A stretch of DNA of 64,000 nucleotides from Brachycybe producta (Eukaryota; Arthropoda; Diplopoda; Playtdesmida; Andrognathidae), in contig JAUPFP010000008.1 of the NCBI GenBank assembly GCA_036925085.1, forward strand, positions 1,957,957 to 2,021,956, written 5' to 3'. The translations under genes were made by a program, and so were the position numbers. Of the stretch, positions 4,925-62,093 are shown piece by piece. Every line of letters begins with the position of its first letter. Position 1 is the stretch's first letter. The notes beneath the pieces were generated by a model that searched no databases, was not told the origin of the DNA, and saw nothing but the letters and a program-made list of their open reading frames with translations.

Positions 4925-5240
4925 GAATGCAGTTAGGGCCGACAAGAGGGTGAAGAAGTCAGAACAAATTCCCGGGCTCGTGCAGCCTGCAGGGCCCGAG
5001 TCTGGATTTTTTTTTTTTTTTTTTTACAAATCACTATCAGATTTTTATTAATTGTGATTTTGTTGCATAATTTTTTTATTTAAATCTTTGTCGCGAATCA
5101 TAATACATAGGTAATACTACTAATAATAATGTTTATAAGTCCGGGCCCCAAACCCGATTTGACTGCACACTGAAGATCACATTTCTGTCATCGGGCGCGG
5201 GTCCTCGTTGCCCGGGCCCGCTCTCGGTGGCCCTGCATTC
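4925..5240. repeat. MITE-like element, short GC-rich inverted ends
   Basis: It starts GAATGCAG then GGGCC and ends with the reverse complement (GGCCCTGCATTC). The subterminal sequences are rich in CCGGGC words on both sides, in contrast to the AT-rich flanks. Similar CGGGCCC-rich patches occur near 7256-7420, 14515-14660 and 63770-63830. No target-site duplication could be fixed. Confidence 0.5.
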
Positions 5241-37865: not shown

Positions 37866-40800
37866 ATGGATCTTCGAAAAGGAGGAAGAAGACTCGTCAA
37901 TTCCAAGGGTGTGTTGAAGGCCACAACCACCACTTCTATCTCAATGGTCTTCCTTATATTATTTCTTCTGTTTCAACTGTGTTTCGGTGAAATCCACCGT
38001 GCTACTAAGTCGCGGCCACCGATCCAGGCGGCCTCCTCCTCCTCAGCCACTAATAACGATCATCATCAGTTTGATTTTTCTCAAAGGTATCATCCTTGGG
38101 CCTGTTCCATCGTTGCCTCTTTACTTATTGGCTTCAGTGGTGTACTGCCTTTGTTCCTTATTCCTGCAGGAAGGATAGAAAACGTTAGGCGGACCTCAGA
38201 CCCTAGTACAGGTGAATAATATTATTCTAAATTAATTATAATTAAATAAAATTTCACACCTGAATTCGTGTAGAACATAGAAATTATTTTATTATATGTG
38301 AGGAATGAGGGTTTTTTCTTTCATTTTATAAAATATGTGCAATTTTACACGTAAAATATAATAAGAGAAGGAAAAAAAAAAACGAAAAGGAAGAGCTACT
38401 CAGCTGGAAGGGAAAAAGTGGTCAAGCAACTTTACTAGAACGGTCAGTAAAATTGGGTCACTATGTTACAATCTACAGAGTGGAACACAATAGTAGAATG
38501 AAAAAAAAATATATATATTTGAGGACGTTGAGCAATTCGCGAAATCTATACGAATAAATCAATAAACATTGAATAAAATCAAAAACTATAATAAGCCGAT
38601 TTTCAATTGGATCATGAAAATTAAAAAAAATTCGTTAATTGATTTATTTTGCTTGGCACAAGTGGGGCCAAATTGGGCCAATGCTAAAAAGATTTTTAAG
38701 TAAATATATTTTTTTTAAACATTGGTCATTTTTGTATCGAATATTTTAAAACACTCTGTATCCATATTACAGTTTTATCTTTCCTATTTTCTCTTCCCCC
38801 CATTTATGATAAGCTAACTCATACTATTATTATGCAAATAAGTTCAGTGATCTATATGAAATTTCATTTTTTTTTTTTTTTTGGAACTTTTATCCTATGT
38901 TAGGCAGTTTTACATCGGTATTTTATATTGTTTTTTTGTTGTTGTTGTGGAATTTTATATAAAAATTTGTCTTCTAAAATAATTACTATTAATTATATAC
39001 AAATTTAAGATAATTTTCGACCAAATGAGGGATTATTTGTTTGCACGCGATTTGGTTCCCCGATGGGCAGTTTATTTTGACTGCTGACATTTTTCATTAT
39101 ATGGTTAGTTTTCATAATGAAATACGATAAAAAAAAATTAAAAATCGTGCGAGAAAACGAATTTATATAAAAATATATATATAAAAAAAGTAAAATGACA
39201 TTTTTTTTTCGCATAAAAGAAAAAAAAAACTAGGAAAACATTTGAGAAAAAAATGAAATTTACTATTTTGTAGAACTTTTATGCAAATTAGTATTAACGG
39301 AAGTTACATAATTATGTGATCTAAAAGGGTTGTTATTTTTGACGGAACTACGCTCGTTACAAATCGCTGAAAATAATAATGCAAAATAGCATAATTAAAG
39401 TAAGAAAATTGACACTATTGCGAGCGAAATTAGCAATAATAGAACCAAGTGAAATTCTAAAAAAAATATAAGCTCGCTCCGCTTGCATTAAAAAAAGTGG
39501 TGATTTTGTCTCTGGACAGTAATTTGTTCGTCAGTCCGATCCCTAATTGCTTGCTCTCAATTGTTTTATTTGATTGATGAGTTTCCGTTGTTGTTGTTAA
39601 AATATTTGTCAAAGGGCAAGTCTTAATTGACCAAATGATCTTTTATGTGTATCTTGTGAGAAGATCTCTTTTTTTTGTAAAGTATGTGTCAAATTATTAT
39701 GAATTGATGAAGTTTTCAAGTGTTTCATGTTTGAAATGTTTGATGAATTTGAGTGGCATTGAGATTGTTTTTTTTATCTTTCACGATGTTATTTCGATTT
39801 ACTAATTTTAAAATGACTCCCACAAACTTAAACGTTTCTTTTTTTAATTTGTCTTGACCTACCAGTCCCACATATACACAATAAACTATTAAATTTTACA
39901 TTCCCTCATTTTTTTATTGTTTTTTGCCTGTTATAAATTTTTACAAAAAAAGGGGGCGACTGAATAAGCGCCAAATTGAACAAACGCCAAACTGAATAAG
40001 CGCCAATCTGAACTAACGCCAAACTGAATAACCGCCAAATTTTTTATCATTTATTCAGTTTGGCGTTTGTTCCAATTGGCGCTTATTCAGTTTGGCGTTT
40101 GTTCCATTTGGCGCTTATTCAGTTTGGCGTTTGTTCCATTTGGCGTTTATTCAGGTTTTTTGTAAATTCTGATGGTCCAAATATTGTGAGCTTTTATAGA
40201 CGTCAGACTGTGCAGATTTACAAACAGAACATGCTAACCTAACCTAACCAAACCGAACCGAACCGAACCTAACCTAACCTAACAATGTGTTTATCACATT
40301 TGGGCGGTTATTCAGTTTGGCGCTTGTTCAGTTTGGCGTTTGTTCCATTTGGCGCTTATTCAGTTTGGCGTTTGTTCCATTTGGCTTTTATTCAGTTTGG
40401 CGTTTGTTCCATTTGGCGTTTATTCAGTTTGGCGTTAGTTCAGATTGGCGTTTGTTCAATTTGGCGGTTGTTCAATTTGGCGCTTGATCAGCGCCACCAT
40501 TTGTAGGTCTGAAGAGGGTGTTTGAAGGAGTTTTATGTTATAACTTATAACAATGGAAAGTTATCTAAAAGAAATTTTTCTTTGTAATAAAGATACAAGT
40601 TTTGCAGCTTGGCACGAAAGTTTTTTTTTTTTTATTTGCTTCCCGTGTTTGATTTTTAGGTTCTCTACCCTCTCATAATCACATGTGTGTGTGTGTAATT
40701 TGTGTTGTTCGCACCTGAATCACAGAATGCATATATTGGTTGATATTCTTATGAAGGGGTCATTGACTCCCCCTCTTAATGTTCACTTGAGGACAAGAAA

Positions 40801-58800: not shown

Positions 58801-61291
58801 GGGGGTGGGTCTTGAATTTGGGCCAAACTGCGGTTCGTTTTAGTGGTCGAATTCGACTGCAAAGTGTAGTCGGCGGGTCGCTTGTGTGTGTGTATGTGTG
58901 CTAAGTGGAAGTGTCCGACATCGTTTTCCATAACAATATATTGCAATCACAGGCCAACCAACCACCTTCGACAACATTTTTCAGTCGAACCCGAGCGTAG
59001 TTAAGTCAAAGCTAATGCTAAACTCATCTTTTTTAATGAAACTTTCTATTAAACATATTTAGATTTAGCAACAACCTTTGACATAAATCATTATGGGTGA
59101 CATTCTTAATGACTACTTTGCAAAAGTTAAAGCAAAACTCATGAACTTCATGTAAAAAAAAGTTGATGAGGTTAGCTTTAACTTTTGCTAAGCAGTCATT
59201 AAGAATACCCACCCTCTTTTTAAGGCGCTTAGTTAGCTTACTGAGCTTTGGGTCGTATTCTTAACGATTGCTTAGCAGCCAAAGTTAGAGCTAATCTCAT
59301 GATCTTTAGATAGGAAGTTTTGTGTATAAAAGTTGACTAGTTTAGCATCTTTGACTTTTAGCAATTATTATCATTATTAGAGGTGTTGGACGAATTCTAA
59401 ATCTTCTCGAATCCGAATCCTAAAACGTTCTCGAATACCTCGAATCCTTCGTATAAGAATCCTATATTATTCATTAAGAAGATACAAATAAATGAAATAA
59501 TATACAATATTAAATTAATAATAAAAAACAAGTGTGGCTTCACTCAGGGTCGCCACAAGGTCATATTGGCGATCCGGTTACCACCGAAATTGCAGGTCAT
59601 ATTGGCGATCCGGTTACCACCGAAATTGCAACAATCGCCGGTTTTTTTGGTTAGTGAACGCTTGTATTGGACGTGTCAATGCAGTTAAAACTAATTTTAC
59701 CAAACTTTTTAGCAGGTTTCTTTAGGAATAACCTAAAGAAACCGCTTTTTTTTCGTTTTTCGAATCTTTCGAATAATAAATTCGAAAGATTCGAAAGACG
59801 AAAAAAGCGGCAAAAGATTCGAGTTTTCGAATCTCGAATATTTTTCAAGATTCGAGGATTCGAATGACCCATCCCTAATTATTAGGGCTCGGATTTTGAT
59901 GCAATATATCAACCGGAATGTTTCTCAATATGTGGCCATGCAAGTGCCAATTGTGAAGTGACAATCTCGTTTAGATAATAAATAAAAAAAAACAATTATT
60001 CTTTCTAATTAAAAATAATGGTTAGAGGCTAGAACTCTAGTTGACAACTGATAGTTTACCAGACATCTAGCCTCTCTACCCAGCTTTTTCTGATTAGAAA
60101 AAAACATAATTGCAGTTGCTCTAATGATTATTACTTCACAATTGGCTCTTGGGCCACAAATTGAGAAACATTCCGGTTGATATTGCATCAAAATCCGAGC
60201 CCTACTAATTATTATTAAGAAATACTACGGGGGACCCCCTTTAAATGCTTATATGGTTGTAGGAAAGAGGGGGAGGAATGGATTTCGTGATAGATTGTGC
60301 AAAATAATTTGGTTTAGATCACGTTCCGTTTCCATTCTCTCGGGCCACCACCGCCACCGCCACTCTTAAATAGACCGAGACTCATCATAATAATAATGAA
60401 TTTGAGGGGGGGGGATAGATAGATAGATCATAAGAACAATAGTGATCTGTATTTTGTTGTTATTATTATTGTTTGTGATTTGTAAAGAGCAAACAATAGA
60501 AGAGAGAAGGAGGAGGAGGGAGTTAAACGACCGGAAATAACATGAACGTATTTTTTTTCTTCTTCAGAACATATATTACAGTCTTATTATATTATACACA
60601 TGTTACTGATCTTTGTCGTTTACTTTGTGACATATTATCTATTGTCTTTTCATTTTCTTTTCTTGTTATAAACTGTTATAAACCTGTTTAAAAGTTTTTA
60701 TTTCAATTGAATAATACGTCACACACATAGAGAAACAACAGCAAACGAAACTGGAGATTTTTTTTTTATAAAATACACGCAAAAAAAATACATAATACTA
60801 AAACACGAAATGAAAAAAAGGTTACACACACACCATAAAGGTGGCGCTGATCAAGCGCCAAATTGAACAAACGCCAATCTGAACAAACGCCAAATTGAAC
60901 AAACGCCAATCTGAACAAACGTCAAACTGAATAAAAGCCAAATGGAACAAACGCCAATCTGAATAAAAGCCAAAAATTTGGCGGTTATTCAGTTTGGCGT
61001 TTGTTCCATTTGGCGCTTATTCAGTTTGGCGTTTGTTCCATTTGGCGCTTATTCAGTCGCCCCACCATAAATGGATTTTCTTTTTTATTTGAAATTCATT
61101 CATTCATTCTTTCGTTTTATGTGTAATTTTTGAAAGAAAATATATTTCTACTCAATTTGAAAAATGTGCCCCGCTTTTTTTTCTGTGGGGTTGGAAGAAA
61201 AAAAATAAGGATTTATTGTGTGCATCAATCTGTGATGCAAAACGGTGTGAGTTAAAAGTTCTTCAAATTTTGCTTTTTTTTATTTTTGCTC

Positions 61292-61335
<44 letters not shown>

Positions 61336-62093
61336 TAATAATAAAAGTAGGTCAGAGTTGTTTCACAAATTCGGAGCAATATCACATTTGTGTTGTGGCC
61401 CTTAGTCTAAATTTCATTTCTCTGGAACAAACAAACTACAAAAAAAAAGTACTAAAGCTGGGTTTACACGAGCAGAAGTCGAGTGAGTTGATCAAATCAA
61501 TCGACTGCTGCTCGTGTAAACCCACCTAGTGTGATATCCAATAATTTGTAGTATTTTTGACATGAACGGGCTCCATAAATTCAAGTGAATTGGTCAACTC
61601 TAGAACTTTAGATATTTTGGAAAAATCGAACAAATAAAAAAAATCGAAAAACCGAAAAAAATTGAAATACTGAGAAGAAAAATCGAAAAAAAATTGAAAT
61701 ACCGAGAGAAAAAATAGAAAAAAAAAATAGAAAAGAATGGAAATAACGAGAGAAAAAATCGAAATACCGAAAAAAAAATTGAAAAAAATGGAAATACCGA
61801 AAAAAAATCGAAATACCGAAAAAAATCGAAAAACCGAAAAAAATCGAAAAAAATGGAAATACCGAGAGAAAAAAATCGAAAAAAAAATGGAAATACCGAG
61901 AGAAAAAATCGAAAAAAAAAAATGAAAATACCGAGAGAAAAAATTGAAATACCGAAAAAAAAAAAAATGAAAATACCGAGAGAAAAAAATTGAAATACCG
62001 AAAAAAATGGAAATACCAAAAAAAAAATGGAAAAAAATGGAAATACCGAGAGAAAAAAATCGAAAAAAAAAAATGGAAATACCGAGAGAGAGA

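What the first reader, a model, noticed from the sequence alone, without database searches (positions are those of the whole stretch)
39953..40498. A transposon whose body is almost entirely inverted tandem arrays of a 16-bp unit (copy 1)
Two loci 20 kb apart share the same two distinct ends, in opposite orientation, with interiors made of alternating 16-bp units (a 32-bp higher-order pair). Length and unit number differ between copies, so the arrays evolve as a satellite while the ends move as a transposon. Copy 1 also captured a ~150-bp unique insert with telomere-like CCTAA/CCGAA repeats. I do not know a named family with this architecture; it could explain how a satellite spreads through a genome.
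Basis: partly seen in the sequence, partly recalled or inferred. Interest (0 to 1): 0.72.

Follow-up and report, generated by a model that had tools for sequence, protein, structure and literature searches.

The report
Foldback transposon carrying telomere-like repeats
The feature is one of several hundred copies of a small, non-coding jumping DNA element built almost wholly from short repeats, usually with a block that looks like the host's chromosome-end repeat; the general design is known, but no match to this particular family was seen in the papers searched.

Summary
Copy 1 (39953-40498) and copy 2 (60840-61063) belong to one high-copy family: end A has 901 matches and end B 840 at up to 2 mismatches in the 295-Mb genome, against 0 for reversed controls. 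Of 54 elements examined, 31 have exact 8-bp target duplications, 9 have 7 of 8, 4 are exact after a shift, 10 have none. Swapped flanks match 0 of 2862 times. Paralogous empty sites carry the 8-mer once. Its CCTAA block matches the repeat near one contig end, probably the host telomere, and varies in 5-bp steps. No transposase carrying these ends was found; hAT, P, MULE and Merlin were checked in part. Architecturally it is a non-autonomous foldback element, like Drosophila Tetris and Galileo: a new variant of a known kind. The satellite claim is weak: no long free-standing arrays were seen.

The parts
39953..40498 (-). Copy 1, whole element (546 bp; A-to-B direction runs on the - strand); no target duplication
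39953..39972 (+). End B, exact
39954..40033 (+). Short inverted 16-bp array next to end B (about 5 units, the partial unit of end B included)
   Evidence: coordinates converted by hand from the row of L001
40034..40048 (.). Junction where the two array directions meet (15 bp here; GCCAAAAATTTGGC is the commonest form in the sample)
40049..40152 (-). 16-bp array between core and junction
40153..40298 (-). Family core: unique stretch with a TATAAAAG motif plus a telomere-type block (boundaries approximate)
40234..40283 (-). (TTAGG)n block with TTCGG/TTTGG variants (reads CCTAA on +)
40299..40481 (-). Long 16-bp array next to end A (about 11 units)
40479..40498 (-). End A, exact
60832..60839 (+). 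Left 8-bp target duplication of copy 2 (ACCATAAA)
60840..61063 (+). Copy 2, core-less element of 224 bp (14 x 16)
60840..60859 (+). End A of copy 2, exact
60857..60968 (+). Forward 16-bp array of copy 2 (7 units, counted from the sequence)
60969..60982 (.). Palindromic junction GCCAAAAATTTGGC of copy 2
60983..61062 (-). Inverted 16-bp array of copy 2 (partial unit of end B included)
61044..61063 (-). End B of copy 2, exact
61064..61071 (+). Right 8-bp target duplication of copy 2 (ACCATAAA)

Best explanation
It is a non-autonomous, cut-and-paste type DNA transposon with foldback architecture, mobilised in trans by a host transposase that was not identified. SHOWN: fixed ends A and B (a G/C-rich cap of about 7 bases plus a partial 16-bp unit), 8-bp target duplications of varied sequence, paralogous empty sites, one A plus one B per element, low divergence of the core, and arrays that differ between copies in steps of 16 bp (minisatellite) and 5 bp (TTAGG block). 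INFERRED: the 16-bp units are repeated transposase-binding sites, as some repeats in Galileo's inverted ends are; arrays grow and shrink by slippage, unequal exchange or gap repair; the two array directions let a single strand fold back; the core came from a host telomere-type repeat before the main amplification and moved with the element.
For: Ends in 901 and 840 places, reversed controls 0. Target duplications in 54 elements: 31 exact, 9 at 7/8, 4 exact after a one-base shift or poly-C expansion, 10 none; the 31 are 31 distinct 8-mers. Swapped-flank control 0 of 2862 exact, 4 of 2862 at up to 1 mismatch. Empty sites with the 8-mer once: L047 vs L066 (exact), L047 vs L042 and L021 vs L020 (one base changed). 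64 A+B, 1 B+B, 0 A+A of 65 pairs, one of which is really several elements. Core: 36 copies within 12 ungapped mismatches over 73 bp differ by 2.9% on average, 10 identical to the reference. Those 10 all differ in length; from the lengths, the 3' part is 7 mod 16 in 9 of 10, the 5' part 5 mod 16 in 8 of 9, TTAGG plus linker 4 mod 5 in 9 of 9. Core-less lengths are multiples of 16 in 14 of 16. No ORF of 110 aa or more overlaps either copy.
Against: No element with these ends and a transposase was seen. Copy 1 itself has no target duplication. Of the 7 empty-site alignments shown, three lie in a local CTCGAATC tandem motif (L025 vs L015, L053, L077) and are weak, and one (L030 vs L048) aligns poorly at the site. 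Binding of the units by a transposase, and present activity, are untested. The element sample is not random: best matches to copy 1, the first-listed exact ends, four fetched stretches and the window. Unit counts come from a simple matching script that also picks up a few stray 16-mers in the core.
Confidence: 0.9

Rival explanations
1. Ordinary satellite or minisatellite DNA that happens to be dispersed, without transposition.
For: Most of the body is tandem repeat and unit numbers vary. Eleven of 100 listed exact 32-mers have no exact end within 2.5 kb.
Against: Fixed ends, 8-bp duplications and empty sites; 89 of 100 listed exact 32-mers lie near exact ends.
Confidence: 0.03
2. Helitron/Helentron-type element with internal tandem repeats (rolling circle).
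For: Expansion of short internal arrays is described for Helitron/Helentron elements (review passages PMC12628747).
Against: 8-bp target duplications in 44 of 54 elements counting 7/8 and shifted cases, and related inverted ends at both termini.
Confidence: 0.02
3. Within the main reading: mobilised by a hAT or P superfamily transposase (8-bp target duplication, non-interchangeable ends).
For: 8-bp duplications; both superfamilies are present (149 and 89 matches). Host P copy L079 shows an 8-bp duplication, read by eye; host hAT copies L085 and L086 each show one, and their end holds GTGGCGC, also found in end A.
Against: One of 49 P hits came within 12 kb of a typed subset of 61 of the 200 listed ends. 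The P and hAT loci read (L079-L081, L085-L088) carry no convincing end A/B and no 16-bp unit at the thresholds used.
Confidence: 0.5
4. Within the main reading: mobilised by a MULE, as suggested for many foldback elements.
For: 21 MULE matches. A MULE in two near-identical copies (L082/L083) has the same kind of body: subterminal 21-bp minisatellite with TTAGG/TTTGG islands.
Against: That MULE has unrelated ends (ACTAGCGTCTGG) and a 9-bp duplication (L083, AAAGAAGAT, read by eye); ends A/B and 16-bp units are absent from L082-L084 at the thresholds used. Those three stretches hold 4 of the 21 matches; the other 17 were not read.
Confidence: 0.2
5. Within the main reading: mobilised by a Merlin transposase (ends begin GG, 8-9 bp duplications, internal tandem repeats reported).
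For: Both ends begin GG and the duplication is 8 bp with no clear consensus; these are Merlin traits in PMC8101967 (passages).
Against: PF12762 gives 0 matches and 0 first-look candidates in this genome.
Confidence: 0.08

Closest known systems
Tetris / DAIBAM, Drosophila virilis group (PMC4079207; abstract and two sections read)
   Same: Non-autonomous foldback element, inverted ends with internal tandem repeats of variable number, 8-10 bp target duplications, no transposase found, shorter deletion relative, linked to satellite DNA.
   Different: About 220-bp repeats rather than 16-bp, three structurally complete copies versus hundreds of copies here, kb-size arrays; no telomere-type core mentioned in the sections read.
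Galileo, P superfamily (PMC3573991 and PMC3688188; passages read)
   Same: Foldback-like ends with internal tandem repeats of variable number in some subfamilies; some repeats contain transposase (THAP) binding sites.
   Different: About 210-bp repeats, 7-bp flanking duplications, transposase known.
FB of D. melanogaster and TU of sea urchin (recalled; the Tetris paper mentions foldbacks in both organisms)
   Same: From memory: inverted ends made of short tandem units; TU with units of about 15 bp and an 8-bp duplication.
   Different: No sequence compared; FB has 9-bp duplications (recalled).
Xenopus MITEs with satellite, Xstir and miDNA4 (review passages, PMC12628747)
   Same: Small non-autonomous elements associated with an internal satellite of variable copy number.
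   Different: miDNA4 is Tc1/mariner; inverted 16-bp arrays are not mentioned in the passages.
MULE L082/L083 in the same genome (found here)
   Same: Subterminal minisatellite interrupted by TTAGG/TTTGG islands.
   Different: 4.2 kb with a 784-aa ORF, different ends, 21-bp unit, 9-bp duplication.

Membership tests
Foldback elements (architectural group) | Inverted terminal regions made of short tandem repeats | tested here: met
Foldback elements (architectural group) | Single strand folds on itself | tested here: met
   In silico only, two copies: z -13.6 and -11.3, no shuffle as good
MITE / non-autonomous TIR transposon | Short, non-coding, high copy, inverted ends and target duplication | tested here: met
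   (ORFs checked for the two window copies only); some copies exceed 1 kb
Mutator (MULE) | Target duplication of about 9 bp (8-11 allowed by some, recalled) | tested here: not met
   8 bp here; the host MULE L083 has 9 bp
Mutator (MULE) | MULE transposase between the same ends | tested here: inconclusive
   21 matches in genome, 3 loci read, no A/B ends
P superfamily | P transposase between the same ends | tested here: inconclusive
   89 matches; 3 loci read without convincing A/B ends; proximity check used 49 hits and 61 of 200 listed ends
P superfamily | 7-8 bp target duplication | tested here: met
   8 bp
hAT | 8-bp target duplication | tested here: met
hAT | Duplication pattern nTnnnnAn (recalled) | tested here: inconclusive
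   position 2 T 12 of 31, position 7 A 14 of 31
hAT | hAT transposase between the same ends | tested here: inconclusive
   149 matches; 66 on C1-C5 compared with listed exact ends, none between a pair; 4 loci read
Merlin | Ends begin GG; 8-9 bp duplication | tested here: met
   definition from PMC8101967
Merlin | DDE_Tnp_IS1595 transposase in the genome | tested here: not met
   0 matches with PF12762
Satellite DNA | Long arrays independent of element ends | tested here: not met
   89 of 100 listed 32-mers near exact ends, 11 not followed; longest unbroken array about 33 units in the sample
Helitron | No target duplication (recalled) | tested here: not met
   8-bp duplications

The most novel reading that the evidence does not exclude
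A DNA transposon family has taken up the host's own telomere repeat and carries it as a second, independently evolving array, sowing up to about 470 interstitial telomere-type islands (469 core places). In the DNA held here, 328 TTAGGTTAGG sites lie in the 54 elements, against 11 in 126 kb kept at least 1.6 kb from any end, 10 of those in one unrelated MULE of like design. The bold reading is that the islands have a use, such as binding telomere proteins to aid end pairing, targeting or evasion of silencing, and that unrelated transposons here converged on it.
Probability: 0.12. Interest if true: 0.75.

Novelty: new variant of a known kind. Interest (0 to 1): 0.45.

Why it matters
It shows one clear route by which short satellite units and telomere-type repeats are scattered through chromosomes: inside a mobile element whose ends stay fixed while two arrays change length in whole units. 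With several hundred copies, many of them young, it allows array turnover to be measured, and it offers a test of whether repeated subterminal units raise transposition (more units, more copies). Interstitial telomere repeats are usually attributed to break repair or chromosome fusion (recalled); here many are delivered by a transposon.

Tried and rejected
Capture of the insert by copy 1: rejected, it is the shared core. Longer relatives by end distance: 65 pairs, 128-2229 bp. The 2229-bp pair is three separate elements (L069) and the 1542-bp pair appears to hold another inserted element (L070). Ends without a partner in L014, L017, L027, L034, L046, L051, L054 and L071 belong to array-bearing copies; no partner end lies in the stretch held, and L017 runs on in a long TTAGG-rich stretch, so its far end may simply be beyond the locus. 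End A without array: 6 places. L074 and L078 share a stretch of about 315 bp that proved to be another dispersed repeat (40 scored of 2661 candidates). ORFs of 100 aa or more: none in L074 and L075, two low-complexity ones in L073 that were not scanned; L076-L078 were not listed. L014 has an 8-bp repeat (AATTCTAC) exactly where its array stops without end B: a single case, perhaps a cryptic end in a unit, not pursued. Viral contigs: 0 matches to an end-A 20-mer and to the 32-mer. Paper searches on telomere repeats with transposons showed no such family in the listings; only listings were read, so this is weak evidence of novelty. A paper search for E2F sites spread by elements and one for 8-bp MITEs with internal repeats added nothing used.

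Full report
WHAT IS THERE. The stretch 39953-40498 is a complete element bounded by two exact 20-base ends, B on the left and A on the right. A second copy at 60840-61063 runs the other way, A to B, and is flanked by the 8-bp repeat ACCATAAA. Both are built from a 16-bp unit, and neighbouring units alternate between two types, giving a 32-bp period. Copy 1 has no target duplication (3 of 8 bases agree).

GENOME-WIDE FAMILY. A first DNA search with copy 1 gave 1535 candidates, of which only 40 were scored. End A has 901 places and end B 840 at up to two mismatches; the same patterns read backwards have none. Pairing the 100 exact A and 100 exact B places that were listed gave 65 facing pairs: 64 of one A with one B, one B+B and no A+A, with 70 listed ends unpaired. 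One of the 65, the 2229-bp pair, is really three neighbouring elements. The two ends therefore seem not to be interchangeable. Exact 32-mers of the unit occur 1043 times; of the 100 listed, 89 lie within 2.5 kb of an exact end, and the other 11 were not followed.

PROOF OF MOVEMENT. In 54 distinct elements (not a random sample: best matches to copy 1, the first-listed exact ends, four fetched stretches and the window), 31 have exact 8-bp target duplications, 9 have 7 of 8, and 4 more are exact after a one-base shift (L029, L060, L067) or a poly-C expansion (L003). Ten have none, among them copy 1 and one internal pairing within the compound element L022. The 31 duplications are 31 different sequences. 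Flanks swapped between elements match exactly 0 of 2862 times and within one mismatch 4 of 2862 times. Where an element sits in another repeat, related copies without the insertion carry the 8-mer once: L047 against L066 (exact), and L047 against L042 and L021 against L020 (one base changed). The other four alignments shown are weaker: L025 against L015, L053 and L077 falls in a local CTCGAATC tandem motif, and L030 against L048 aligns poorly at the site.

ANATOMY. Read from A to B: end A; a forward array; usually a core; a second forward array; a palindromic junction (GCCAAAAATTTGGC is the commonest form, 36 elements); an inverted array of about 2-9 units; end B. Forward units per element range from 4 to 41 in the 54 (60 if the whole compound copy L022 is counted), with at most about 33 unbroken; the counts come from a simple script and include a few stray matches. 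Core-less elements have lengths that are multiples of 16 in 14 of 16 cases. The core is present in 38 of 54 elements and in 469 places genome-wide at up to 3 mismatches. So copy 1 did not capture it; whether copy 2 lost it or descends from core-less elements is open. The core holds a TATAAAAG motif and a (TTAGG)n block with TTTGG, TTCGG and GATTGG variants.

AGE AND ARRAY TURNOVER. Over 73 bp of core, 36 copies (those within 12 ungapped mismatches) differ from the reference by 2.9% on average and 10 are identical to it. These 10 all have different total lengths. Their parts, by the lengths printed, differ in whole units: the 3' part is 7 mod 16 in 9 of 10, the 5' part 5 mod 16 in 8 of 9 (one copy lacked the marker), and the TTAGG part 4 mod 5 in 9 of 9. 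Array length thus changes faster than point sequence, and nearly always by whole units.

TELOMERE LINK. TTAGG x 4 occurs 761 times forward and 7581 times reverse, against 6 and 1 for the reversed control. The 100 listed places form one continuous array near the left end of contig C1, starting at base 5001. This fits TTAGG as the host telomere repeat, although only one contig end was visible. In the DNA held here, TTAGGTTAGG has 328 hits inside the 54 elements (11.5 per kb) and 11 in 126 kb kept at least 1.6 kb from any end: 10 in a MULE held twice and 1 at window 3022.

SEARCH FOR THE TRANSPOSASE. hAT domains give 149 matches, P-type 89, MULE 21, Merlin 0. None of 66 hAT hits on C1-C5 typed in lies between paired exact ends; three lie within 8 kb of an end but outside the pair. 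Loci read for P (L079, L080, L081), MULE (L082, L083, L084) and hAT (L085-L088) carry no 16-bp unit at the thresholds used. The only end-like matches are isolated ones with 6 of 20 mismatches, or 12-base matches of the end A tip, in L079-L081. Read by eye, P copy L079 has an 8-bp and MULE L083 a 9-bp duplication, and hAT copies L085 and L086 have 8-bp ones. So the superfamily is open; by duplication length hAT or P is favoured over MULE.

MECHANISM. Shown: fixed ends, 8-bp duplication, one A plus one B, unit-wise array change. Inferred: a transposase in trans recognises the ends, with the 16-bp units as repeated binding sites. The precedent is Galileo, whose inverted ends contain extra THAP-domain sites in tandem repeats (PMC3688188, passages including the abstract). 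The inverted arrays fold strongly in silico (z -13.6 and -11.3); no biological role for this was tested.

COMPARISON. Foldback elements are a known architectural group thought to have arisen in more than one superfamily (PMC4079207, two sections). Tetris is the nearest described case that I read: non-autonomous, variable arrays in the inverted ends, 8-10 bp duplications, transposase unknown, and a source of satellite DNA. The present family differs in its 16-bp unit, strict two-end polarity, hundreds of copies with many young ones, and telomere-type core. I therefore call it a new variant of a known kind. Claims of novelty rest on the listings and are limited to that library.

Noticed in passing
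L082:1514-5686 and L083:287-4480: MULE of 4.2 kb, two copies 99.5% identical, 784-aa ORF, 21-bp subterminal minisatellite interrupted by TTAGG/TTTGG islands, 9-bp target duplication in L083.
   Followed up: partly
L084 (C5:5399500-5409300): Locus with two MULE-domain hits that is a near-perfect 4.7-kb palindrome (99.3%) with an outer minisatellite of about 30 bp.
   Followed up: no
L085:980-4150 and L086: hAT-domain element in two copies 99.97% identical with 8-bp duplications and one end beginning CAGTGGCG; perhaps recently active.
   Followed up: partly
L074:1150-1480: Dispersed repeat of about 315 bp found in two decayed relatives; 40 copies scored out of 2661 first-look candidates.
   Followed up: partly
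L022:1367-2965: Compound element with three end-A sequences in one 1599-bp copy that has an exact 8-bp duplication; looks like an internal tandem duplication of the A end.
   Followed up: no
L014:1501-1928: Copy without end B whose array stops exactly at an 8-bp repeat of its left flank (AATTCTAC); a possible cryptic end in a unit.
   Followed up: no
window 39953-40498 and 60840-61063: The unit contains TTTGGCGC, an E2F-type site (recalled); 8 of 12 such 8-mers in the window lie in the two copies.
   Followed up: no
window 59360-59576: Dispersed repeat with relatives in L005, L015, L020, L053 and L077; elements L021 and L025 sit in copies of it.
   Followed up: no
window 61647-62089: A-rich AAAAATCGAAA-type tandem array beside copy 2.
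   Followed up: no
L027, L034, L074, L077: A further small inverted-repeat element (GAAGTTGGCTCCGCCC...) or close variants of it lies in or near several copies, seen by eye.
   Followed up: no
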